A stretch of 32,313 bases of DNA, taken from Candidatus Omnitrophota bacterium. GTDB lineage: Bacteria; Omnitrophota; Gorgyraeia; Zapsychrales; Fredricksoniimonadaceae. A program made the position numbers and the translations under genes. The stretch spans positions 1-32,313 of the forward strand of contig JABDFL010000011.1 in assembly GCA_013286575.1 (NCBI GenBank). The letters run 5' to 3'. Positions 4,990-18,587 of the stretch are shown one piece after another (the stretch's first letter is position 1; every line of letters starts with the position of its first letter). Below the pieces are notes generated by a model that made no database searches, had not been told where the DNA came from, and saw only the letters and a program-made list of their open reading frames with translations.

Positions 4990-7900
4990 TTAATTCAAAT
5001 AACCCTCCCCTAACATGGCCCGGAGCATGTCAGGGGTGACTGTTACAATTTGGGAAACTTTAGGGACAACGCCATTGATGACAGGTTCTGAGGTAAGATT
5101 TTTATCCATTTCAATCCTATTTTGGAGGTCTCCGGTGATTTTTAATCGCATCAGCCGGCTGTTCATGTTAATGCCTCCCGGATTATGATCATTGCTTAAA
5201 GAACCCATTGCATTATCGCCGGCAAGCCTTAACGGAACAATCGTTTCATCCGTTATTTCCGCTACAGTCTTTTCTCTTCCTGAATCCAATATCATCCTTG
5301 CTTCTTCACTAATTGGATTAAGTCGTGTGGTGTAGACACCCGCGCTTGATATCGTAAATGCAGTATCGAAAAACCTGCCATTCCAGCTGGCTATCCTGGA
5401 CATCTCCACTCCGATTGTTTTAGCAGCGATCATTTCTCCTAAAACACCGACAGTATTGTCCATGAGCCTGATCTCATCTTTGCCGGCACCCTCCTCATGA
5501 GGGACTTTAATTTCAACGTTTAAAATTTGTGCTTTGCCTTTGATCGTCGGGCCAAATACTTCTGTTTTAGGATAAACCGTCTGGTTGACCCCCATGCTTC
5601 CTTCATTTTCTTTGTGCGCCAAAAAGAACCTTAAAATAATATCACCGGCTTTCACGGCAGAGGCATAATTGGCTGTAAAATCAATCTCGGGATCTCCCCC
5701 TAAAGGTTCTGTAGGGCCCATTAAACTAAACTTATTTGTCATGATCCGTGAAAAGAAATTCCGCTGCGTCTTATGGATGATTGCTTTAGCGGCAATAAAC
5801 AGCTGAAAAGTCCCGTATCCGCCATTTTTAGGACGGCCAATCCTTTTGCGATAAAAATTTGCCGCTAAAACAGGGACCAGGACGCTGATCCAAAAAACAT
5901 TGATCGCTACATTAAGAAGAATCCCCCAACCAAGATAATGCCCCAGTAACAAGGCCGGAGACAGTAAAACACCGGCAACAAAAAATCTCATAAACCAGGT
6001 CTTTATAAACGGCTCTAAAGCCACTTTTCCCAAATAAGTGCCCATGGCCTTGATCTTTTTGTCGGCATTTTTATATGCCTTGCCACTAATGTCATAGCCG
6101 GTCAATTCCTGTGCCATTTTAAGCGAGCCGGCTGTAATTTTGGGAGCAATGCGCTCCAGGTCTTGTGTTGGGAATTTTAAACCTATCGAATTTCGGGCAT
6201 CGTTCCTCTTTTCCAGCCGGCGCGCAAGATTAACAGCCAGCTGCTGCAGCTGAAACATCAATAAAACTTCGGATACAACGGGAGTTTCTGCGGGATAGAA
6301 TTCCCCGGTAACAAAGACGCGTTTCGTAAACTTGTCTTTTCCCGGACGCAGCCCCTGTCCGATCATGGTATTGAGGACTGAGTCGATACGGGCACCCATA
6401 CAAAAAATGTTCTTCGGATTGACCAGGGTTTTAATGATCCTCAGGGCAAGCTTGGTTGAAAATGTGGCGCCTGATTTACTGACCATCAAAATAATATCAT
6501 CCGGCTGAATATTAAATGCTGAAGGGGATTTATCAAATTCATTCGCATCAACCGGTTCAAAACTCACCTTAGAAGTATCAATCAAATCGTTCCCAATCTC
6601 TTTGAATTGTTTTGTGAGGGTATGGGAATTGTCAAAACCGATAAGCACAACGCGGGCACGCCCATTCTTTTTTATGTTGTCAGCGATACGTTCACTTAAA
6701 TAGTCTGTTGATTGCATATTAAAAGAACCGGAATCATTCCACTCTGCCCGGGCCTGGGCCAGGACCTTGGATGTATTGCGAAGGTCTTCCTGCACTATCT
6801 GGCGGGGATTATCATATTGAACGCCGGGAGGCGCATAGTAAGGGTTTATTTTTTTTACACCGTCGGCATCCACATATTCCCGGGCGGTGGGATAAAATCT
6901 TTTTTCCAGTTCTTCTTTGGTGCTTTCTTTCCATTCCCCGCTTACCCTGATCCAGGAGCGTACGATGATTTCATTCGACGGTGAAAAAGACAGCCTAACA
7001 ATTTCCCCGTCTTTTAAGTGCATGACTTCTTCAAATTCCTGCTGTCCGTCAGGGCCGATGGATTTAAGCACGCGGGGGTCTGATGCAGCGCCATAATACC
7101 CTTTTTTACGGTTTAGCCCGATAATAACGTCCTGATTGTCCTGGTAAAAAGTAATACTGTCATCCAGCGAAGAATTCATATAAAGGCCGTATGTCCCGTC
7201 AGAGCTTTCAGCAAATTCCTTGGTTGCCGCCGTATTATCGGCTGTAAAGAATTTTTCCACAGCCACATCAATAAACAGCCGGCGCATATGTTCCAAATCC
7301 ATCCCCTGCCTTTTCCATTTTTTTTCCCATTGCCTGAAAATTTTTCCGGCCAGGGTCTGCTGCCCGGCTTCTTGGGCCATTCTTTTATCCAGCATGTCCT
7401 TAAAAATTTCAATCATCCGGAACTGGTATTCTAACCCAAGTTTTCTTGCGGTTTTTTCATCCTTAACGTACAAATCATTTAAAGTCCTTACTAATTCAGG
7501 ATCGGAAGGATTATACCCGCGCCGGGAAATAAACGGCTCTACCTGATCGTACACCTCACTAAAGACACGGCCAATCATCCGGCCCTGTTTTTCAAATAAA
7601 ATATCATTTTTAGCCTCCTGCAGATCATGATGGTTGGCCATCACATGGGCATAGCGTACAGATGCAAACCAGCTGCCCTGGGTCAAATCCAGGTGCTGTT
7701 CCAAAGGAGGAATGGTGCCGTCCCCGGGGGCCATGCCGAATAAAGCATCATTGATTTGATTAAAGATTTTTTCATTATACGCAGGAAACCAGCTTTTAAA
7801 TTCTTCATCGACCCCTTTGAATTCCCGATTGACATACCCCCAGAAATTTATATATCTTTTTTTACGCAAGGCCCGCAAGACAGCCCCATAATTTGGTTTA

Positions 7901-10900
7901 AATTCTGCTTCGCTGAATCCTTTCTTAAGATACCTTATGGTGACCCTTCCGTTATAATAGGAATGCACTGCTGCGGAATAGAAACTACGCATGTCCTCAG
8001 GTTTTAACATACGTTCTTTTAAAAGCAATCTATAGGGAACCCCTATTTTGCTGCCGTCATGGTCCCCGTTAAAAGCGAAAGTTATCCGGAAATATCTGAC
8101 CACTTTTCTAAATTTATTCTGGGCTGTATCGAAAACCCAGACTTCCCTTTTTTCGTTGGGACTTGTAAACGGCTGGGCTGCTTCAGGAACCATGTCCCCG
8201 CCTGTTGCAAAACGCACATGAAACAGGAATTTTATTACCCCTGATTTGGCATAATTGTAAACAGGGACCAGCTTACGGGGCAGGGCTTTATAAAAACGGG
8301 CGTGAAGATCATCGATCATATTGCGATAAAAAACCGGATCATGCAATCTCAGCCAAAAATACCAGTTACGCAACTGTTTTGTTATTTTGATAAGCAAGGG
8401 TTTATCAGCGAGGTTTGTCGCACCGCCTGCCTGCTGTCCGCCCCGGACAGTCAGGGATTTTACATTACGAAAAAATGTATTCAGTACCGGCTTGATTTCT
8501 TTTTTTGTGATCCCCTGAGAAGCAATGCTTTTAACAAGAACGATGATGCCGCAGCCGAATTTTCCCTGGTCCGTGTCCGATGAACCTAATAAATCACCTG
8601 ATTGAACACTGCCTTTTAAAACTGCCGCAGAACTTAAAATTAATGAAGCTAAAAACGGGACTAAAAAAGGAGTTAAAAGCATCATATGTCCTGCGTATGC
8701 AGCTACGGCCATTGATCCGAATAAACCTGACCATCCAACAAGTCTATTTCTCAATTTATCCCACCAGTTCCCTTCTGCGTTAGCAAAAGGTAAATTGACA
8801 TAAGAACGGGCCACGCGCGTACCCGGCAAGAGCGATTTAAACCATTGGCCTAAACTATTATGACCCTTTAAATTGTTTCCACTCCATGCAGCGCTGATCC
8901 GGTCAGGATATAAAACGCTGGCAGCTGCAGGGTGAAATATTTCATGCAGCCATTTTTGTAACACATATAGACCGCGGGTAACAAAAGGCATGGCCAGCAG
9001 CATCCATGAAACCCCTCCATCCAAAAATATACTAAGACCAAAGCCCCCTAAACCACCTAATAAAGCGCTTATATCCATCCACCGTAAACTTTGACTGCCT
9101 AATAATGCGTCTTGAGGATCTTCCTCTGCAGGTATCGGTGGCGGCGGAGCAACTTTTCCGCTGGCCACATCACGTAATTTAGCCAAATCTTCCGCTAATA
9201 TCTGTTCTTCCCCGGATGATGCTGCCGGAGGCGGCAGAGCAACATCAAGAAGGACTTTTTGATCTGTTGGATCAGGAAAAACAGGTGGAATCCCCGAAAG
9301 CTGTGGAGATAACGGTGCCGGGCCTGCTGTATTATTGCTGGTTTTATGCGTCGATAAACCGTTTAATGTATAACCTCTTGTTCTCAAGCCTAATAGTCCC
9401 AATCCTACAGCAGTTAATACAATAGTGACCGTTCCCCATGACAGATAATTTTCATGATTCTGTTGCGCATCTTCTACTATAGGCATACTCACTGTCTGTA
9501 AATATGCCGGATGAGATAAAGCAGCTTCCTTTTCTCTTTGTTGGCGGTTACGTTTGAAGACATCTTCAGGATCCATACTATCACCTGTAGCCAGCGGGGC
9601 TGAAGGAGTAGTTATGGTTGATGTTACATTAGGACCAGGAGCATTTTCCGGCGGTAATGTTTGCCGTAATAATGCCGCCATTTCCGGGGTTGCGTGGGCA
9701 ATTCTATCTTGTCTAATTCTCCTAAAAACCGCTTCAGGATCCATTGATGCGGCCCCTGCCTCTGTTGCAGTAGAGTCAGCAGGTTGATTGTTCGGAATTA
9801 TTGGCGGTGCCACAGGTGCAGACGATGCTACAGCATTTGCAACAGGCGCGGATAATGTATGAAAAATATCAGCTTCGGGTTTAGGAGGCGGTGGCGGTGG
9901 TGATGATGCCGGAGCTGCTGCCGGCGGTGCCGGCGGAATTGGTAATGCTGCCAACGGTGCTGTTGAAACCGGCTTCACCGCCGTTGGTGTCGGTGAAACA
10001 GGTCTTGCTTGTGCTACTGGTGTCGGTAAAAACGACCTTACAGCCACTGGTGGTGCCGGTGAAACAGGCACTGCTGACGGCAACTGCTGCTGCATTTGCC
10101 GGGACACGGAAGCAGGTTTAGGAAAACGGATGGTTTGGCCGACATATATTTTATTAATATCTGTCACATTAGGATTGGAGTTTTTCATCACATAAAGAGC
10201 ATCTTTCAGGACAACGCCGTGTTCTCCAAATAAAGGATTGATCTTGTCAAATTTTTGAATGATATGCCCTAAATCAAGGTCCCCCTTTTCTACAATTCCT
10301 GCTATTTCCTCAGGATTGGAACCGGGAATTTGCTGAAAAGCATGGGCTAAAGGAGCTGCTGCAGCGAAAGCTGTTAAAACAGAAAACGAGAGAAGTATTC
10401 CGCGTGCGAATGCCCCTATTTTTTTAGAAAGCGTGATTTCATCCTGTCGGCCCTGCTGTGAAAATTTGAATATCTCCCCATCCTTACCTGTAGCTGTCAG
10501 GTCAACAGTGGCCATGGCCAAATCAGTCCCTAGCTTGATCCCGTCAGGATCAGGGGTCTCCATATACTTGGCCGAATCCGGACCAAAACCGGCAAAATAC
10601 ATCCCGCCTGATGCATATTTATGGGGTACTGTTTGCTGGGTAATGGGATCGTAATCTTCTTTAATATAGTTATAGACGCATTTTTTATAAGCTTTCAGAT
10701 ATTGCCGGAATATTTTTTCTTTTGCATCCTTATCAGCAATGTCTACTCCGGTTACTTTATTTCTCCCCACATATATCCTTCCAAGTAAGCTGTCTTTTAA
10801 ATGGCGCTTATACCAGGTCGCCAAAATCATGGCATTATAAACCTGCCTGACAACGGCAAAATTCTTTCCCTCATTGACCTCCTGGCGCAATTCAGGAAGG

Positions 10901-11631
10901 ATAACATCACGCAAAACCTCCGAATACGCCCCGGCATCCTCATAGACATGCCGGTGGTATATAAATGCTTTATAATCAGCTTCCAACATAACATCCAACC
11001 GGCTTTTGACAACAAAGGCACTGCTGCCCTGGACATATACTTCTGCGGATTCAGGGAGTATCCAGACTTTATTAAAAGTGTTGATAGGGACAGATGTCGT
11101 GCCGTAAAGTTCGTAAGCCCTGCGGTAAATTTTTTGCCAAAACCGTTTTCCTAATTCATTTCCAGGATAGCTTAAGGAAGCCATTACCTGTTTGAGCAGA
11201 TAATCCTGTTCCAGCAGATCTTTTCCCATCAGGGTAATCCCGAAATTACCAGGCACAATACGGTCTTTTTCATAGGGTGAAAGATTGACCCATAAATCCT
11301 CTTCAGGGACGGCAAGGCAGGTCAGGAAATATTTTGCCAAACGGGTAATGCCGTCTTTTAAAAACGGTCCCTGAAGACCGGAACCCCCCTTATCTACTAA
11401 AAAATCAAAACGAAGGGGATTTTTGCTGTTGACCATGATCCCTTTTAACTGTAAGGGTTCAAAAGAAGGGCTGGTGGTGACCATGGTCCCCGCAGCAGGC
11501 AATCCCATGAAGGTCTGCGCTTGGGCCACATCCCAAATGCCGGAAGAACTTAGCACAAAAGCGCTCAACAGGAAAATGATCCCGAGACGGAACAAAAGGA
11601 AATCCTTAAATGAGGAAAAACGTAAGATCAT
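4990..11631 (-). CDS. giant secreted/membrane protein (2213 aa): conserved head, internal signal-like segment, LysM-like region, Pro-rich linker, TM/HEXXH segment, GATase-II-like domain, SIS-like domain, TM pair, conserved tail
   Basis: Single uninterrupted ORF. N-terminal signal peptide; NPNVTDINKIYVGQTIRFPKP LysM-like; LHEIFHP (HEXXH); FGCGIIV...RGGQQAGGA...HVRFATGGDMVPEAAQPFTSP...FAFNGDHDG resembling GlmS-type GATase II motifs; DDIILMVSKSGATFSTKLALR resembling a SIS domain. Confidence 0.85.
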   Translation of the reverse strand: MILRFSSFKDFLLFRLGIIFLLSAFVLSSSGIWDVAQAQTFMGLPAAGTMVTTSPSFEPLQLKGIMVNSKNPLRFDFLVDKGGSGLQGPFLKDGITRLAKYFLTCLAVPEEDLWVNLSPYEKDRIVPGNFGITLMGKDLLEQDYLLKQVMASLSYPGNELGKRFWQKIYRRAYELYGTTSVPINTFNKVWILPESAEVYVQGSSAFVVKSRLDVMLEADYKAFIYHRHVYEDAGAYSEVLRDVILPELRQEVNEGKNFAVVRQVYNAMILATWYKRHLKDSLLGRIYVGRNKVTGVDIADKDAKEKIFRQYLKAYKKCVYNYIKEDYDPITQQTVPHKYASGGMYFAGFGPDSAKYMETPDPDGIKLGTDLAMATVDLTATGKDGEIFKFSQQGRQDEITLSKKIGAFARGILLSFSVLTAFAAAAPLAHAFQQIPGSNPEEIAGIVEKGDLDLGHIIQKFDKINPLFGEHGVVLKDALYVMKNSNPNVTDINKIYVGQTIRFPKPASVSRQMQQQLPSAVPVSPAPPVAVRSFLPTPVAQARPVSPTPTAVKPVSTAPLAALPIPPAPPAAAPASSPPPPPPKPEADIFHTLSAPVANAVASSAPVAPPIIPNNQPADSTATEAGAASMDPEAVFRRIRQDRIAHATPEMAALLRQTLPPENAPGPNVTSTITTPSAPLATGDSMDPEDVFKRNRQQREKEAALSHPAYLQTVSMPIVEDAQQNHENYLSWGTVTIVLTAVGLGLLGLRTRGYTLNGLSTHKTSNNTAGPAPLSPQLSGIPPVFPDPTDQKVLLDVALPPPAASSGEEQILAEDLAKLRDVASGKVAPPPPIPAEEDPQDALLGSQSLRWMDISALLGGLGGFGLSIFLDGGVSWMLLAMPFVTRGLYVLQKWLHEIFHPAAASVLYPDRISAAWSGNNLKGHNSLGQWFKSLLPGTRVARSYVNLPFANAEGNWWDKLRNRLVGWSGLFGSMAVAAYAGHMMLLTPFLVPFLASLILSSAAVLKGSVQSGDLLGSSDTDQGKFGCGIIVLVKSIASQGITKKEIKPVLNTFFRNVKSLTVRGGQQAGGATNLADKPLLIKITKQLRNWYFWLRLHDPVFYRNMIDDLHARFYKALPRKLVPVYNYAKSGVIKFLFHVRFATGGDMVPEAAQPFTSPNEKREVWVFDTAQNKFRKVVRYFRITFAFNGDHDGSKIGVPYRLLLKERMLKPEDMRSFYSAAVHSYYNGRVTIRYLKKGFSEAEFKPNYGAVLRALRKKRYINFWGYVNREFKGVDEEFKSWFPAYNEKIFNQINDALFGMAPGDGTIPPLEQHLDLTQGSWFASVRYAHVMANHHDLQEAKNDILFEKQGRMIGRVFSEVYDQVEPFISRRGYNPSDPELVRTLNDLYVKDEKTARKLGLEYQFRMIEIFKDMLDKRMAQEAGQQTLAGKIFRQWEKKWKRQGMDLEHMRRLFIDVAVEKFFTADNTAATKEFAESSDGTYGLYMNSSLDDSITFYQDNQDVIIGLNRKKGYYGAASDPRVLKSIGPDGQQEFEEVMHLKDGEIVRLSFSPSNEIIVRSWIRVSGEWKESTKEELEKRFYPTAREYVDADGVKKINPYYAPPGVQYDNPRQIVQEDLRNTSKVLAQARAEWNDSGSFNMQSTDYLSERIADNIKKNGRARVVLIGFDNSHTLTKQFKEIGNDLIDTSKVSFEPVDANEFDKSPSAFNIQPDDIILMVSKSGATFSTKLALRIIKTLVNPKNIFCMGARIDSVLNTMIGQGLRPGKDKFTKRVFVTGEFYPAETPVVSEVLLMFQLQQLAVNLARRLEKRNDARNSIGLKFPTQDLERIAPKITAGSLKMAQELTGYDISGKAYKNADKKIKAMGTYLGKVALEPFIKTWFMRFFVAGVLLSPALLLGHYLGWGILLNVAINVFWISVLVPVLAANFYRKRIGRPKNGGYGTFQLFIAAKAIIHKTQRNFFSRIMTNKFSLMGPTEPLGGDPEIDFTANYASAVKAGDIILRFFLAHKENEGSMGVNQTVYPKTEVFGPTIKGKAQILNVEIKVPHEEGAGKDEIRLMDNTVGVLGEMIAAKTIGVEMSRIASWNGRFFDTAFTISSAGVYTTRLNPISEEARMILDSGREKTVAEITDETIVPLRLAGDNAMGSLSNDHNPGGINMNSRLMRLKITGDLQNRIEMDKNLTSEPVINGVVPKVSQIVTVTPDMLRAMLGEGYLN

Positions 11632-14600
11632 ATTGATCCCAAAAGATGGTTGATCGCTGTTTGTGTCAATGGCTTGACATTTTCAATAACAGGAACCAGT
11701 CCTTCAGATTTTAATAAAACATCCAGCTGCGCCTTGTCATCAAAAGCTGTCTTTATCTCCCCTGTCCCTTTAGACTGGAGCACAACATTTTCCAAATCAA
11801 TACCGCCGTTAGGTATGGCTGCCATTGCATTATCCGGCCGGGAGATTTCTTTGATTAAATTTTTAAAGACAGGTATAAAAACAACATTGTTTTTGAAGCC
11901 GGGGTCCATGGCATTAATAAATGAATTAATTTTAGCAATCACTTCTTCCTGATGGCCAGGGGCCCTGCCTATGCGGACTATATTTTTTTCAATGGTGGTG
12001 CCGACATAGCTGCCTCGAAAACCAACCCCGTAAACCGTATAACCGTCCAATTCATTATCCACATAAGCATGCAACAACGGCCAAACCATGTCTGTCTCTT
12101 TTTTATTGCCAATGGCATTGACAAGCTCATTAAAAGCCTCCGGATGATGCGCTATAAAATCCTTGTCCTGCAAATAATGCAGGGCCTGGCGCCAGGCATC
12201 GGCCCCTCTTTTTGACAGCTGGGCCATGTACAAAATCCAGTCCTGGTTTGTGAAACCTTCCGTGTTTGTCAGCATCATTTGGGAATTCTCTCCAAGGACC
12301 TGGTACTGATCGCCATGATAGAGCAAAAATGTCCGCACTTCAGGCCCTGCACAGTGAATATCATTTTGGAACAATAATGTCACTGCCCGCAAGCGTGCGA
12401 TGGCAGCCATCTGCCTCACGGCATTTGTAGGATCGAGCAAATCTTCAAGGTCTTTTAAAGGGTCTTCATCGGCCGGCACAGCAGATATTTTCTGAGGGAC
12501 CATATTTAATGTACTGGCCAATTCCGCATATACACCGGGAATGCTATGGCCTCCCTCAACCCAAATGGGCATCTGCGGGGGAACATTCAAGAAATGAGTA
12601 TCCGTTGATGGATTGATTTCCATATTTATTCCGGCCACCAACTGCGGGTCAATGGATTTAAGAAAGACATATTGCACTCCGTCCTCAAATCTCTTGGACC
12701 TTATCTGATGTTCGAGATTTCCCCTTAAATGGTTTACGATGACATTATATTTGACGGCATCTGTCTTTTTTAAATCTTGGATAAGGTCTCTCATGCTTCG
12801 TAAAACATCCATGAAATCAGAAAGCTGCAAAGGATCGTTGGTAAAATTGGGATACATTATCCGTTGTTTTTTTGCCTCTATCGTTGGGCGCTGGGCAAGA
12901 ACATTAACGCCTTCCCAAAATAAATTGGCCGCCATTTCAGGAGGGGCATTCAAAAACAATCTCAATGCATCACTTTGCGTGACTGCACCGGGCGCATTCC
13001 TGAATTCGTCTAAATATTGCATTTCAACTTCCTTATTTTTCACTTCATTTAAAATAACCCCTCCAAGCTGTTTTTCAGCCGATGCAATGACCCTTTGAAG
13101 AAGGACCCTGTGCCCCTGATCTTCAAAATTCGGTGAATTTTTTAATATAAAATGAAGATCATATAAAGCCATGCCTGGAAAACGCAGATGCATTGAGGCC
13201 AGGCGGGTCAATACCTCTGTTAATTTTGGGTCAAATATATTAGGATTTGTAATAGCTATAATGTAATCCGTATATTCCGGTGATGAGGCTTCTTTGCCTA
13301 AATCCTGCAAAGCTAAGCGCTCCGGCTCAGAAATATCAACTGATGAAAGCTTGTCATCAATAGCTGCCTGTAACGCATCAATCCCCAATGACCTTAATGA
13401 CGACCCCATCTGATATTCATTTTTTAATGATACGGGATTTTGAAGATTTCGGTTTTTCACATAAGACAAATACGTTTCAACGATCCTGGGGGCGGCTTTT
13501 AATGTCTGGTCCTTGGTGACACCTTTTTGCTGGTCTGATCCTATAAAGCTTTTTATAACGATCTCATCCACCTTCATGGAATTTCTATTTAAAAGCCCGC
13601 TTAATAGTTCGAAGGCCAGTTTTTTGTTGCTTAATTTAAGGAACACATCGGCCATTCTGATTAAATATGCAGGGTTGCTGTATTGCTCAATGTATTTATT
13701 CATGATTGCCTCCCCTGATCCGGTATCGGAAGGTCTTTTGTAAACACTGTCAGCTTCATCAATGGCCCTGGCCGCGCTTTCAGCCGTAATACTGCCTTCG
13801 CCGCGCAAATAACCTAGAAATGTCTTTTCTGCAGATTCCCAACTGCCACCGCCACTGATGGCTGGACCTCCGGAAACAGCGGCCCTCGGACGGGCTGTAT
13901 ATCCTATAGAAGGGGCAGTACCGCCTCCTGAATTATCGGGTCTTGCAGCAACAGGGACATTTCGCGGAGCATTATTGATGGCTGCCATGAATTGGCCCTG
14001 GGTAAACCCTGTAGAGTCATTGAAGCCCGCCACCATCTCACGCCAATCGCCTTGATACTTGGCCACTAAACGGGCATCAAAATTAAGTTCGCTCCAGTAA
14101 GTAGAGGATACATTTAAAGAATTTCCTGCCGGATTAGGCATGCTAAAGACATGGGCAATGATGTCATTGACCAATGGTCTTAGCTGCACAGCGATGACAG
14201 GCAAAGCAGCAAGGGCTTTTTTCTCTAGACCATAATCACCTTTTAATTTGCTGTTCATTAAACTGTACCATTTATTGACATTATTATTGACCCCCATGGC
14301 CAGAATCACCGGTAAGTTTGCGGCAATCGCCCCGATAACCTGGGGGTCTTCATTATCGCGGATGGCATCATATAAAAATGGCAAATAAAAAGGGCCTCCT
14401 TCACTGAGGATCCTTTGAACATTGCCCTGAGGGTCCTCGCTGTTTTGTAATTGCTGCAGATAAACTTTTAAATCCCCGCTTAAAGGCATGATCCTGACCG
14501 GTGTGGAAGGCAAGCCTGTGTAAGCCTGTCTAAATTGGGCAAGTACATTATTAAAATCAGCTTCTGTGAGCGCTCCCTGCTGGACAGCAAAAAATACCAT

Positions 14601-16745
14601 CCCGAGTTTATAGTAATTCAAGACATCTGTCTGATTTCCGGCGCATTCTTTGGCCATCAGATCGATATTGTCAAAAAGATTTCCCCTATTACCGCCTGAT
14701 AAAGCAATAATGCCTTCCATGGCATGACGGACCTGCTCAATCCAATTTTGTGAGCCGACAGTGTCGGTGGGCCTGTTTTTCTGGATGAAGTCCTGGATGC
14801 TTTGGCTGACACTGGCAGCAACAGGCATATTTTGATTCCTGGCTGCTGAAAGCATGGTGTTATAAACAGTCAGATCATTGGGCTGGGGAGTTTCAGACAA
14901 ATATTTGCTGATCATATCTTGATGGTACCCGCTTGATTTGGGAATGGCTAAAAACACCAAAGCCGCTGCCCTGGCAACAATTCTTCTTGGATCATGTAAT
15001 TTGTCCTGAACATGGGCAAGCCCGGAAATGTTATGGCTTGATAAAAAACCGCCGGATGCCCCGCCTTTTTGGACCATTAATGCAACGACCATCAGCCTGG
15101 CCGCTTCCACGGAAGCGTTAGGGTCATCTGTATTAATCAACCGTTCAAAAATCCCGGTTTGAAAAAATCTCTGCATGAGCGTCGAGGACGGGACCTGATT
15201 GGAAAGCGTGTATTTGGTCAATAAATACTTCGCAGCTGCCAAGCGCAATTCCTGGGAAGTAACATTATTGGCGTTTTTCAGATCTAAAACAAAGTTACCG
15301 ATAAGATTGAGAATGCTTACCGGGACAGCCGCTGATATATTGGGAAAAGACATTGTCGTATTGGTCAATATGTCCAGGGCCTTATCGTAAGACCCTCCTT
15401 TACTTAAACTCAAACACAGGGCAGCATATTCATCCAGGCTGTCGTCACTAAAATACCTTTCATCAGTCAGTCTGTTAAAAGCTTGCGCGGCTGCTGTTGG
15501 GTCCCCGCTTCCGTAAGCTGCCCCCCGGATAATGCTTAAATCCTGCGGGGCAACAGACTGTTGATAAATTTGCTGTGCCTGTGCCAGCACGGGTTGGGCT
15601 GTAGAAATAAGAGTTAGGGCCAAAAAAACCCTGGCAATTAAAAAATTCTTTTTTCTAAAACCAGCCGCGGCCATGGCTTTATTAGTAGTAGTGACTTCAT
15701 GAAGGGCGCCTCCGAAAAAACCGCCGGAGAAATATTTTCGCGGGACAATGCTTTGGCTGGCTTCATCAAAATCTTCTTTAATAAAATTAAAAACGCCTTT
15801 TTTGTAGGCCCTTAAGTATTGATCGTAAATTTCAGAGACCCGTTGTTTATCACGGCTGTCAATGCCCTTGATCTTATTGCGGTCAATGTATCCTTTGGCA
15901 ATAATGTTATTTCTTAAATGGTCTTTGTACCATTTGGCCAAGATCAGGGAATTGTACACCTGGCGCAAGGGCGCAAAATTCTTTCCCTCATTGACTTCTT
16001 TTTCCAGGGCAGGGATCACCAGTTCTTTTATTACGGCCGCAGACAAAGTGCCTGTGCCGGTTTCTGTGACCGCAGCTGTATTAAAACGAAATTTATTTTT
16101 ATTTGCGGCCAAATAATCTTTTTCCAGCATTACCTTCAAAGAACTGTCTGCCACAAAAACCGCATTCATTTTTGTATTTTCATACACCACTGCCTTGTCA
16201 GGAACGATCCATACCTTATTAAAAGTGTTAAATGGGATATTGGTGGTGCCGAATTTTATCAACGCTTGCTTGTAAATTTTTTGCCAGAATTCACGGCCCA
16301 GTTGGCGCTCAGGATAAAGGGCCGTGGCCATGATCTGCTTGAGCATATAATCCTGGGCCAGCAAATTTTGCCCCATCAGCGTTTTCCCAAAAAATTCCGG
16401 AACGATCCTGTTTTTTTCAAATGGGGATAAATTGACCCAGATCTCTTTTTCAGGGGTGGTCAATGATGCCAGGAAATAAGCGGCTATCTTTTGGCTTTGT
16501 GCCTTTGCCTGCCCTTTGTTTAAATGAGCATCCCCTTCATCCAGAATAAAATCAAATTTAAACGGATTTTCAGGATGAAAAATAATCCCTTTAAGGGTTG
16601 CCTTGTTGAATTTAGGGCTGAAATCAACCATGTGTCCGGGGGCAGGCAAATCAATAATGCTTTGGGCAGAGGCATCAGGAAGCGGACCTACGGAGGTAAA
16701 TAAAAAAACTGTCAGGATCAAGCGGGCGATAAGTTTAGTAAACAT
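11628..16745 (-). CDS. giant secreted protein (about 1705 aa) with the same head and tail modules and an alpha-helical, HEAT/TPR-like middle
   Basis: The track starts at a TTG (16757); the ATG at 16743-16745 follows GAGG with 6 nt spacing and fits better. N-terminal signal peptide, head closely matching the downstream giant protein; stop overlaps the next start as ATGA. Confidence 0.85.
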   Translation of the reverse strand: MFTKLIARLILTVFLFTSVGPLPDASAQSIIDLPAPGHMVDFSPKFNKATLKGIIFHPENPFKFDFILDEGDAHLNKGQAKAQSQKIAAYFLASLTTPEKEIWVNLSPFEKNRIVPEFFGKTLMGQNLLAQDYMLKQIMATALYPERQLGREFWQKIYKQALIKFGTTNIPFNTFNKVWIVPDKAVVYENTKMNAVFVADSSLKVMLEKDYLAANKNKFRFNTAAVTETGTGTLSAAVIKELVIPALEKEVNEGKNFAPLRQVYNSLILAKWYKDHLRNNIIAKGYIDRNKIKGIDSRDKQRVSEIYDQYLRAYKKGVFNFIKEDFDEASQSIVPRKYFSGGFFGGALHEVTTTNKAMAAAGFRKKNFLIARVFLALTLISTAQPVLAQAQQIYQQSVAPQDLSIIRGAAYGSGDPTAAAQAFNRLTDERYFSDDSLDEYAALCLSLSKGGSYDKALDILTNTTMSFPNISAAVPVSILNLIGNFVLDLKNANNVTSQELRLAAAKYLLTKYTLSNQVPSSTLMQRFFQTGIFERLINTDDPNASVEAARLMVVALMVQKGGASGGFLSSHNISGLAHVQDKLHDPRRIVARAAALVFLAIPKSSGYHQDMISKYLSETPQPNDLTVYNTMLSAARNQNMPVAASVSQSIQDFIQKNRPTDTVGSQNWIEQVRHAMEGIIALSGGNRGNLFDNIDLMAKECAGNQTDVLNYYKLGMVFFAVQQGALTEADFNNVLAQFRQAYTGLPSTPVRIMPLSGDLKVYLQQLQNSEDPQGNVQRILSEGGPFYLPFLYDAIRDNEDPQVIGAIAANLPVILAMGVNNNVNKWYSLMNSKLKGDYGLEKKALAALPVIAVQLRPLVNDIIAHVFSMPNPAGNSLNVSSTYWSELNFDARLVAKYQGDWREMVAGFNDSTGFTQGQFMAAINNAPRNVPVAARPDNSGGGTAPSIGYTARPRAAVSGGPAISGGGSWESAEKTFLGYLRGEGSITAESAARAIDEADSVYKRPSDTGSGEAIMNKYIEQYSNPAYLIRMADVFLKLSNKKLAFELLSGLLNRNSMKVDEIVIKSFIGSDQQKGVTKDQTLKAAPRIVETYLSYVKNRNLQNPVSLKNEYQMGSSLRSLGIDALQAAIDDKLSSVDISEPERLALQDLGKEASSPEYTDYIIAITNPNIFDPKLTEVLTRLASMHLRFPGMALYDLHFILKNSPNFEDQGHRVLLQRVIASAEKQLGGVILNEVKNKEVEMQYLDEFRNAPGAVTQSDALRLFLNAPPEMAANLFWEGVNVLAQRPTIEAKKQRIMYPNFTNDPLQLSDFMDVLRSMRDLIQDLKKTDAVKYNVIVNHLRGNLEHQIRSKRFEDGVQYVFLKSIDPQLVAGINMEINPSTDTHFLNVPPQMPIWVEGGHSIPGVYAELASTLNMVPQKISAVPADEDPLKDLEDLLDPTNAVRQMAAIARLRAVTLLFQNDIHCAGPEVRTFLLYHGDQYQVLGENSQMMLTNTEGFTNQDWILYMAQLSKRGADAWRQALHYLQDKDFIAHHPEAFNELVNAIGNKKETDMVWPLLHAYVDNELDGYTVYGVGFRGSYVGTTIEKNIVRIGRAPGHQEEVIAKINSFINAMDPGFKNNVVFIPVFKNLIKEISRPDNAMAAIPNGGIDLENVVLQSKGTGEIKTAFDDKAQLDVLLKSEGLVPVIENVKPLTQTAINHLLGSI

Positions 16746-16759
16746 AAGCAGCCTCAAAT

Positions 16760-17030: not shown

Positions 17031-18587
17031 TTATAGCAGATTAATGACTTCGGAAGGCAGGCGTTTGAGTTCCTGGGTGCCTAAAATCCGGATGGACCAG
17101 CGCATAAGATCCAGTTTTTGCTGTAGTTTCAAATCCGGGGTTGTGATGTTCTGCAGGCGGTTGCGGGACAGGAAAAAGATCTTACGCAGGGTCTCAAAAA
17201 CAATCCTGGCCTCTCTGGGATAAAGGCTGTCTTTAGTGATCTCTAAAAGATCATCATAAGCCATGGTGCTGACCACCGGATTATAATGGTCCATTTTTTG
17301 GATCAATATGGGGACCATGCTTTCAAAATAATCGTAACGGTCTAAAACGACCAGGGTATGCATGATCTCAACCTGGACAAAGGGAGAATCACTGCGGTTA
17401 AGCCGCCGGATCAAGATCCTAAGGATATTGGATTTTTCATTGCTCAAAACCTCATCAGCATATTTTTCTTTAAAGACCCGCACCGCGGCTGTGCATTTAT
17501 ATTCCCCCAGAGAATCATCCGCGATCATGGCCAACAAAATGTCCATGGGTTCATTGGCGTATTTTTGAGTATAGCCTTCCAAAAGGGCCCTATCATCAAA
17601 AATGGCCCCTGAAGAAATATTCGCCTGGTTGATATCATCCTGGTCCTGGGCCCATAGGGGGCTGATGAACAGCAATGTAAAAAATAAAAATAAAAAATGG
17701 ATTCCCGCTTTCGCGGGAATGACGGGAATGACTGGGAAAGTTGAGGTCTGTATAAACTCCATGGAAATATCCAATGCCCGATGCGAATGGGTCAGGGCCC
17801 CGACTGAAATACGGTCAACTCCGGCGGCCGCGTATTGCCTGATATTTTTTATGGTAATGCCTCCGGAAGCTTCCAGCAAAACACGGGATTTGGCTTTTTG
17901 ACGTAAATAAACTGCCTGCGCCACTTGTTTGGGCGTCATGTTGTCCAATAAAATAATGTCCACCTTGGAATCCAGAATTTCTTTTAATTGGTTGAGATCA
18001 TCGACTTCAACTTCGATTTTTTCCTTGGTCCTTTTTCTTAAAGTGCTGATGGCCTCGTTCATGTGGCGCGCACCGCAGGCAACGCGATGATTATCTTTGA
18101 CCAGGGCCATGTCATTAAGATTAAAGCGGTGATTGACGCCTCCCCCTGTCCGGACGGCATAACGCTGCAGCTGGCGCAATAAAGGGGTGGTCTTGCGGGT
18201 GTCCATAATAGCGGCTTTATACGGTTTAATTTTCTTAACAAATAAGCGGGTTTGAGTGGCAATGCCTGATAAAAAAGACAGCAGATTAAGGGCCACCCGT
18301 TCCCCTGAGAGCAAGGCCCTGGTGGGGCCGGAAATTTCCGCAATGATGCTGCCCTTGTGAACCGCTTGGCCGTCTTTGATCAAAGGGCGAAATATGATTT
18401 TAGAATTGAGGGCCTTAAAAACTTCACGGGCGAGATTAACGCCGCAGATGATCCCGTCGGATTTTGAGATCAGGCGTGCCTTGCTGCGTGAATTTGAAGG
18501 GACCAAATTATCAGTCGTAATGTCCCCTTCGCCGATGTCTTCGGCAAGGGCCAGTTGAATGATGGTTTTGACATATTCTGGTTTCAT
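17031..18587 (-). CDS. nadC: nicotinate-nucleotide pyrophosphorylase (carboxylating) fused in frame to an exported HEAT-like protein
   Basis: Residues ~1-280 are NadC (DTRKTTPLLRQLQRYAVRTGGGVNHR, LLDNM, EASGGI...GVDRISVGALTHS). Then repeat-derived PVIPVIPAKAGIH, a signal-peptide-like FLFLFFTLLFISPLWAQ and a HEAT-like region. Confidence 0.9.
   Translation of the reverse strand: MKPEYVKTIIQLALAEDIGEGDITTDNLVPSNSRSKARLISKSDGIICGVNLAREVFKALNSKIIFRPLIKDGQAVHKGSIIAEISGPTRALLSGERVALNLLSFLSGIATQTRLFVKKIKPYKAAIMDTRKTTPLLRQLQRYAVRTGGGVNHRFNLNDMALVKDNHRVACGARHMNEAISTLRKRTKEKIEVEVDDLNQLKEILDSKVDIILLDNMTPKQVAQAVYLRQKAKSRVLLEASGGITIKNIRQYAAAGVDRISVGALTHSHRALDISMEFIQTSTFPVIPVIPAKAGIHFLFLFFTLLFISPLWAQDQDDINQANISSGAIFDDRALLEGYTQKYANEPMDILLAMIADDSLGEYKCTAAVRVFKEKYADEVLSNEKSNILRILIRRLNRSDSPFVQVEIMHTLVVLDRYDYFESMVPILIQKMDHYNPVVSTMAYDDLLEITKDSLYPREARIVFETLRKIFFLSRNRLQNITTPDLKLQQKLDLMRWSIRILGTQELKRLPSEVINLL
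17697..17732. repeat. palindromic element family A, copy 4, with tandem gggaatgac
   Basis: atggattcccgctttcgcgggaatgacgggaatgac at the nadC/HEAT junction. Confidence 0.85.

What the first reader, a model, noticed from the sequence alone, without database searches (positions are those of the whole stretch)
4990..16745. Two adjacent giant proteins share a head and a tail around unrelated payloads (modular 'bookend' architecture)
Seen directly: the proteins at 4990-11631 and 11628-16745 share ~340 N-terminal residues (e.g. DLWVNLSPYEKDRIVPGNFGITLMGKDLLEQDYLLKQVMASLSYP / EIWVNLSPFEKNRIVPEFFGKTLMGQNLLAQDYMLKQIMATALYP; GTTSVPINTFNKVWILP / GTTNIPFNTFNKVWIVP; EVNEGKNFAVVRQVYNAMILATWYKRHLKDSL / EVNEGKNFAPLRQVYNSLILAKWYKDHLRNNI; KYASGG / KYFSGG). 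They also share a short C-terminal motif (PGGINMNSRLMRLKITGDLQ...GVVPKVSQIVTVTPDMLRAMLG / NGGIDLENVVLQSKGTGEIK...GLVPVIENVKPLTQTAINHLLG). The middles look unrelated: LysM/HEXXH/GATase/SIS versus an alpha-helical solenoid. The genes overlap by ATGA and are probably co-expressed. Inference: head and tail form a common export, anchoring or assembly module carrying different cargo, which I cannot match to a named family.
Basis: partly seen in the sequence, partly recalled or inferred. Interest (0 to 1): 0.85.

Follow-up and report, generated by a model that had tools for sequence, protein, structure and literature searches.

The report
Omnitrophota bookend proteins with swappable payloads
These bacteria carry dozens of very large proteins that share the same front and back ends but hold almost completely different middles, and a short four-amino-acid signature marks the joints where the middles are swapped and probably cut, which suggests a previously undescribed bacterial polyprotein-like system.

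Summary
The two window proteins share a ~315-aa head (48% identity) and a ~60-aa tail around unrelated middles. The same incomplete 1.32-Mb genome has 26 heads and at least 24 tails; these genes make up about 10% of the assembly. The head has no Pfam, NCBIfam or PDB sequence match. Its AlphaFold model (pTM 0.82) has no PDB or viral fold match. Head and tail are confined to Omnitrophota (75 of 243 sampled genomes), with up to ~78 candidate copies per genome.

An unbiased k-mer search finds SSP[VIL] or ASPL in its place in related lineages. Payload similarity between same-genus species starts and stops at these motifs. About 19% of heads are followed, near the motif, by a second signal peptide.

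Best explanation: an exported, modular, polyprotein-like family whose units are exchanged at the motif (well supported) and released by cleavage there (inferred). Function in host interaction is speculative. I found no description of it in the paper library.

The parts
11628..16745 (-). Bookend protein 2 (P0002): head, solenoid-like payload, tail; ATG start at 16745 (TTG possible at 16757)
16665..16745 (-). N-terminal Sec-type signal peptide of P0002 (..SVGPLPDASAQ)
   Evidence: sequence; hydropathy
15717..16655 (-). Head domain of P0002, ending in the invariant Y..GG (KYFSGG)
   Evidence: AlphaFold
15672..15683 (-). Junction motif NKAM between head and payload
15564..15656 (-). Second signal-peptide-like segment directly after the junction motif (RKKNFLIARVFLALTLISTAQPVLAQA)
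   Evidence: sequence; hydropathy
11835..15671 (-). Payload of P0002; no match in 57 other genomes of the order
11823..11834 (-). Junction motif DNAM between payload and tail
11631..11819 (-). Tail of P0002 (GGIDL...GLVPVIENVKPLT...LLG)
4990..11631 (-). Bookend protein 1 (P0001): head, GlmS-like payload, tail; overlaps P0002 by ATGA
11515..11631 (-). N-terminal Sec-type signal peptide of P0001 (..WDVAQAQ)
   Evidence: sequence; hydropathy
10600..11508 (-). Head domain of P0001
10513..10524 (-). Junction motif DLAM
10348..10449 (-). Second signal-peptide-like segment (KKIGAFARGILLSFSVLTAFAAAAPLAHA); an equivalent segment is present in five orthologues
5284..8625 (-). Conserved GlmS-like part of the payload: CGI (Cys1027), RGGQ, HxRxATGG, NGD, SKSGAT
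5206..5217 (-). Junction motif DNAM between payload and tail
4993..5190 (-). Tail of P0001 (GGINMN...GVVPKVSQIVTVTPDMLRAMLG)

Best explanation
This is an Omnitrophota-specific, highly amplified family of exported, modular, polyprotein-like proteins. Each has a Sec signal peptide, a head of unmatched fold, one or several payload units, and a short C-terminal tail. A tetrapeptide ([D/N]xAM here; SSP[VIL] or ASPL in other lineages) marks the unit borders. SHOWN: shared head and tail, unrelated payloads, motif enrichment, motif at payload exchange points, protein-level constraint on the motif. INFERRED: a protease cleaves at the motif, so that head, payload units (some with their own signal peptide) and tail become separate chains; head and tail act as a common export or assembly module; the payload repertoire turns over quickly, plausibly for interaction with other cells.
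For: 26 heads and 24 tails in one genome. Complete head genes nearly always carry a tail: 12 of 14 here and 68 of 83 in related loci; many exceptions are split frames followed by a tail ORF, or divergent tails. DxAM 94 observed vs 3.8 expected in middles, about background in other ORFs. Unbiased k-mer search ranks D.AM first, and SSPV or ASPL first in lineages lacking it. Codons of SSP vary freely, so the constraint is on protein. Payload similarity between proteins ends at the motif in both partners far more often than chance: 4 of 59 ends within 6 aa vs 0.0005. L305/L317: heads 80% identical, then unrelated immediately after [D/N]AAM. Motif lies within 75 aa after the head in 18/22, 11/15 and 16/19 genes vs 0.11-0.16 in control windows. 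Second signal peptide after the head 26/139 vs 2.3%; Tat signals right after motifs, e.g. DQAM-MGRRDFLK. P0001-type GATase carries its catalytic Cys internally, which by established class-II GATase chemistry needs a freed N-terminus.
Against: No cleavage data exist. No protease was identified: peptidase S8 does not track with the family. The Cys of the GATase is not next to a DxAM motif. Not every tail has a motif just before it (15/25 here). The second signal-like segments could be membrane anchors. The tail model is low-confidence. The GCG codon excess at the motif in this genome is not explained by a purely protein-level role. Boundary coincidence rests on few pairs because payloads are rarely shared.
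Confidence: 0.5

Rival explanations
1. The motif is only a flexible-linker or recombination joint: units are shuffled there but the proteins stay intact, as large multidomain surface or periplasmic proteins.
For: Alignment ends fall at the motif; GCG codon excess in this genome, e.g. GATGCGGCGATG 21/21 in frame; flanks are less hydrophobic than payload average.
Against: Strong amino-acid specificity that changes by lineage, free codon choice at SSP, and signal peptides directly after the motif are not needed for a passive linker.
Confidence: 0.3
2. Motif Met codons are internal translation starts, giving separate proteins from one frame.
For: Met is invariant in DxAM lineages and is sometimes followed by a signal peptide.
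Against: No Shine-Dalgarno-like enrichment upstream; SSP[VIL] and ASPL lineages have no start codon of the usual kind conserved there.
Confidence: 0.05
3. Polymorphic-toxin-like or injected effector family: head is the trafficking module, payloads are host-directed effectors. This can hold with or without cleavage.
For: Conserved N-terminus with hypervariable cargo; enzyme domains such as PLD, GNAT, methyltransferase, phosphoribosyltransferase; fast payload turnover within a genus.
Against: Variable part is internal, not C-terminal; no candidate immunity genes next to the window pair; many payloads look like ordinary enzymes or HTH proteins.
Confidence: 0.15

Closest known systems
Giant ORFs of Omnitrophota (PMC10066038)
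   Same: Same phylum; long proteins, few annotated domains, poorly conserved, proposed for host interaction
   Different: The window genes are 5-7 kb, not >20 kb. A term search of that paper's text found no mention of polyproteins or paralogous families. Here a defined head, tail and junction motif unify the genes.
Polymorphic toxin systems
   Same: Constant N-terminal module with exchangeable cargo
   Different: Cargo is internal and multi-unit, a constant tail follows it, and no immunity gene was seen beside the window pair
Viral polyproteins
   Same: Several units joined by short recurrent sites; works like a polyprotein if cleaved
   Different: No viral fold match for the head; cleavage unproven; units are mostly unrelated between copies
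GlyGly-CTERM / rhombosortase sorting (PMC3237569)
   Same: Short C-terminal signal with an invariant GG shared by many different proteins
   Different: Tail lacks the transmembrane helix of that signal and is paired with a specific head

Membership tests
Polymorphic toxin systems | Variable toxin domain at the C-terminus | tested here: not met
   C-terminus is the conserved tail; the variable part is internal
Polymorphic toxin systems | Immunity gene next to the toxin gene | tested here: not met
   Window neighbours are a molybdopterin hydroxylase gene set and nadC/valS; other loci not surveyed
GlyGly-CTERM or PEP-CTERM sorting proteins | C-terminal motif, TM helix, basic cluster | tested here: not met
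   GG present, but no TM helix in nearly all tails and no NCBIfam hit
Type IX secretion CTD proteins | Match to a T9SS C-terminal domain profile | tested here: not met
   No NCBIfam or Pfam hit to the tail
Polyprotein (functional class) | Multiple units joined by recurrent short sites | tested here: met
Polyprotein (functional class) | Proteolytic release of units | not testable with these tools
   No proteomic data; inference only
Omnitrophota giant ORFs (PMC10066038) | ORF longer than 20 kb | tested here: not met
   Window genes 6.6 and 5.1 kb
GlmS-type GATase/SIS enzyme (P0001 payload only) | Catalytic GATase-II and SIS motifs | tested here: met
   CGI, RGGQ, HxRxATGG, NGD, SKSGAT conserved across P0001 and its orthologues
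GlmS-type GATase/SIS enzyme (P0001 payload only) | Family profile match over the curated cut-off | tested here: not met
   SIS 16.2 bits vs cut-off 25; no GATase hit

The most novel reading that the evidence does not exclude
Omnitrophota run a cellular polyprotein system. Dozens of exported precursor chains with a common head and tail are cut at a lineage-specific tetrapeptide by a dedicated, co-evolving protease, releasing a quickly reshuffled set of payload proteins used against or on other cells.
Probability: 0.35. Interest if true: 0.93.

Novelty: categorically new. Interest (0 to 1): 0.83.

Why it matters
About a tenth of this assembly belongs to one family that no searched database or paper describes. 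If the motif is a cleavage site, it would be a cellular counterpart of viral polyproteins, with payload exchange at defined joints. It would also give a handle on the poorly annotated large proteins of Omnitrophota, a phylum thought to include epibiotic predators: payload units could be cut at the motif in silico and folded one by one.

Tried and rejected
Head fold search against PDB and viral models: nothing credible (best PDB E 0.06, prob 0.21). PDB sequence search with the head profile: none. Tail AlphaFold: low confidence, pLDDT 62.7, so no fold claimed. Internal translation initiation: no Shine-Dalgarno signal, and no Met in other lineages. Peptidase S8 as the universal processing enzyme: absent from 5 of 10 head-rich genomes. 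A second, divergent S41 paralogue occurs in 9 of 10 head-rich vs 1 of 10 head-less genomes, but the two groups also differ in phylogeny, so this is only a lead. PDB search with the P0001 payload, alone and as a profile: no credible hit. A PHROGs scan of head and tail failed on a coordinate error and was not repeated.

Full report
CHECK OF THE OBSERVATION. BLASTP gives 48% identity over 339 aa for the head (E=4e-95) and 28% over 74 aa for the tail (E=0.001). The tail match is weak alone, but the same tail occurs about 20-24 times in the genome, and an HMM built by iteration scores nearly all of these at E<1e-7 or better (the model was trained on them). The middles show no significant similarity to each other.

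SCALE. The head occurs 26 times in the 1.32-Mb, 52%-complete genome (29 matches, three of them the second half of a split match). The family ORFs total about 44,400 aa, or about 133 kb (10%) of the assembly. Heads are 48-64% identical to that of P0002, while of 31 middles only two pairs are detectably similar at E<1e-5. Of complete head genes, 12 of 14 here and 68 of 83 in related loci carry a tail. Many of the rest are followed within about 20 bases (or with overlapping ends) by a headless ORF with a tail, or have a divergent tail just below threshold. So head nearly always implies tail.

DISTRIBUTION. In a sample of 243 genomes of the phylum, 75 have the head; nearly all members of the same order do, and a divergent form occurs in other families of the class. 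First-look candidates reach 78 per genome. A scan of 85,488 species found at least 577 relatives. The 80 best are all titled Omnitrophota/Omnitrophica except one titled only 'bacterium' and one labelled Elulimicrobium. Tail-positive genomes (9 of 118) are all head-positive. No Pfam, NCBIfam or PDB sequence family matches head or tail (the PDB sequence search used the head only). AlphaFold models the head well (pLDDT 79.6, pTM 0.82), with no credible PDB or viral fold match. The tail is modelled poorly.

THE JUNCTION MOTIF. Just after the head and just before the tail there is a [D/N]xAM tetrapeptide: in P0002 NKAM (359) and DNAM (1642), in P0001 DLAM (370) and DNAM (2139). In the family middles of this genome DxAM occurs 94 times against 3.8 expected from composition, plus 27 NxAM. 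Among other ORFs it is at background: 2 vs 5.8 and, in a cleaner non-overlapping set, 5 vs 6.4, where some of the five lie in probable family fragments. It is always in frame and sense; GATGCGGCGATG occurs 21 times in the family genes, all in frame, and nowhere else in the 320 kb examined. A genome-wide pattern search found 31 GATGSGGCGATG and no reversed control. Multi-unit proteins have extra copies (up to 18 in L060), with a median spacing of 278 aa.

In related loci an unbiased k-mer search ranks D.AM first (140 vs 7.2) in proteins selected for having it, and SSPV first (18 vs 0.33) in those selected for lacking it. In another family of the class ASPL ranks first (17 vs 0.27), with no selection. 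Ser codons at SSP are unbiased, so the constraint there is on the protein. In this genome Ala codons at DxAM show an unexplained GCG excess. As inference only: the three motifs share a small residue or Pro at the third position and Met, Val, Ile or Leu at the fourth, which resembles the P2-P1 preference of elastase-like serine proteases.

PAYLOAD EXCHANGE. P0002's payload has no match in 57 other genomes of the order, including two of the same genus. P0001's payload has matches in seven, four of them over about 1,100 aa of the GlmS-like part at 33-39% identity. Those four and one shorter match (L290) carry the head and a recognisable, often divergent tail. Between same-genus species, and between paralogues, shared payload segments sit in different frames and often end at motifs. 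L060 1064-1370 and L062 1222-1524 are one homologous Tat-signal unit running from motif to motif. L313/L302 match up to NPAM and then diverge. L305/L317 have heads 80% identical and a linker 62% identical up to [D/N]AAM, then 22%. Over all pairs, 4 of 59 alignment ends lie within 6 aa of a motif in both partners, against 0.05% for random positions. Shared units have dN well below the near-saturated dS (0.20 vs 1.9 in L310/L320), so they are real proteins under purifying selection.

SECOND SIGNAL PEPTIDES. 26 of 139 heads are followed within 130 aa by a signal-peptide-like segment, against 2.3% of random payload windows, and all five P0001 orthologues have one. The rule is a simple home-made one, not SignalP. 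Tat signals follow motifs directly: DAAM-VTRRKLLRG, DQAM-MGRRDFLKAMG. Two successive signal peptides, both with basic n-regions, do not fit one continuous exported chain by the positive-inside rule (established knowledge). Cleavage between them would solve this. The P0001-type payload is GATase-II/SIS-like by invariant motifs, and class-II GATases need Cys as the free N-terminal residue (established knowledge), but the Cys is internal (residue 1027). Both points favour processing. Neither proves it, and that Cys is not at a DxAM.

PAYLOADS. Pfam hits are few: HTH_3, Crp-type HTH, GNAT, methyltransferase, PLD, phosphoribosyltransferase, UDP-sugar pyrophosphorylase, a SAM-like domain. Most units are orphans. 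Family genes are poorer in GC than other genes (rest of gene 0.417, GC3 0.38, vs 0.477, GC3 0.54).

PRIOR WORK. The main genomic survey of the phylum notes giant ORFs that are poorly conserved and of unclear function (PMC10066038). Searches of the held library found no description of this family or motif. Most subscription papers, and preprints, are not covered.

VERDICT. The bookend architecture is real and large in scale. Exchange at a lineage-specific motif is well supported. Cleavage is the best mechanism but unproven (about 0.5). A role towards other cells is speculation.

Noticed in passing
Own-genome loci, e.g. window 24133, 19437, 564 (-); L050:8025, 7535 (-): Dispersed repeat GTCATTGCGAG...GAAGCAATCT (40 and 36 copies of the two halves in 320 kb) is read through inside head genes as VIASxAKQS; a second repeat (TTCCCGCGAAAGCGGG) is also dispersed, and peptides of the type VIPAKAGIQ occur in heads. 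The first also sits inside the window's valyl-tRNA synthetase gene.
   Followed up: partly
window 17031-18587 (-): Quinolinate phosphoribosyltransferase (residues 22-277) has about 240 extra C-terminal residues without a Pfam hit of their own.
   Followed up: no
L147 (DYOU01000075): Head and tail gene in a MAG titled Candidatus Elulimicrobium (Patescibacteria group by NCBI taxonomy): mislabelled or misbinned Omnitrophota, or a transfer.
   Followed up: no
Genomes G116, G089, G118, G134, G117, G131, G146, G226, G241: A divergent S41 (C-terminal processing peptidase) accompanies head-rich genomes, 9 of 10 vs 1 of 10 head-less; confounded by phylogeny.
   Followed up: partly
L225-L227 (G074): Divergent heads, two of which have N-termini with LLAC or LLLC before the head: possible lipoprotein signals instead of a Sec AxA site.
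   Followed up: no
own-genome tails (A2): Tails fall into at least two sequence types, IKFHIDPAML..FVPVIINIQPM and MTIKRDGNGVPI..LDPVIISIKPA, in one genome.
   Followed up: no
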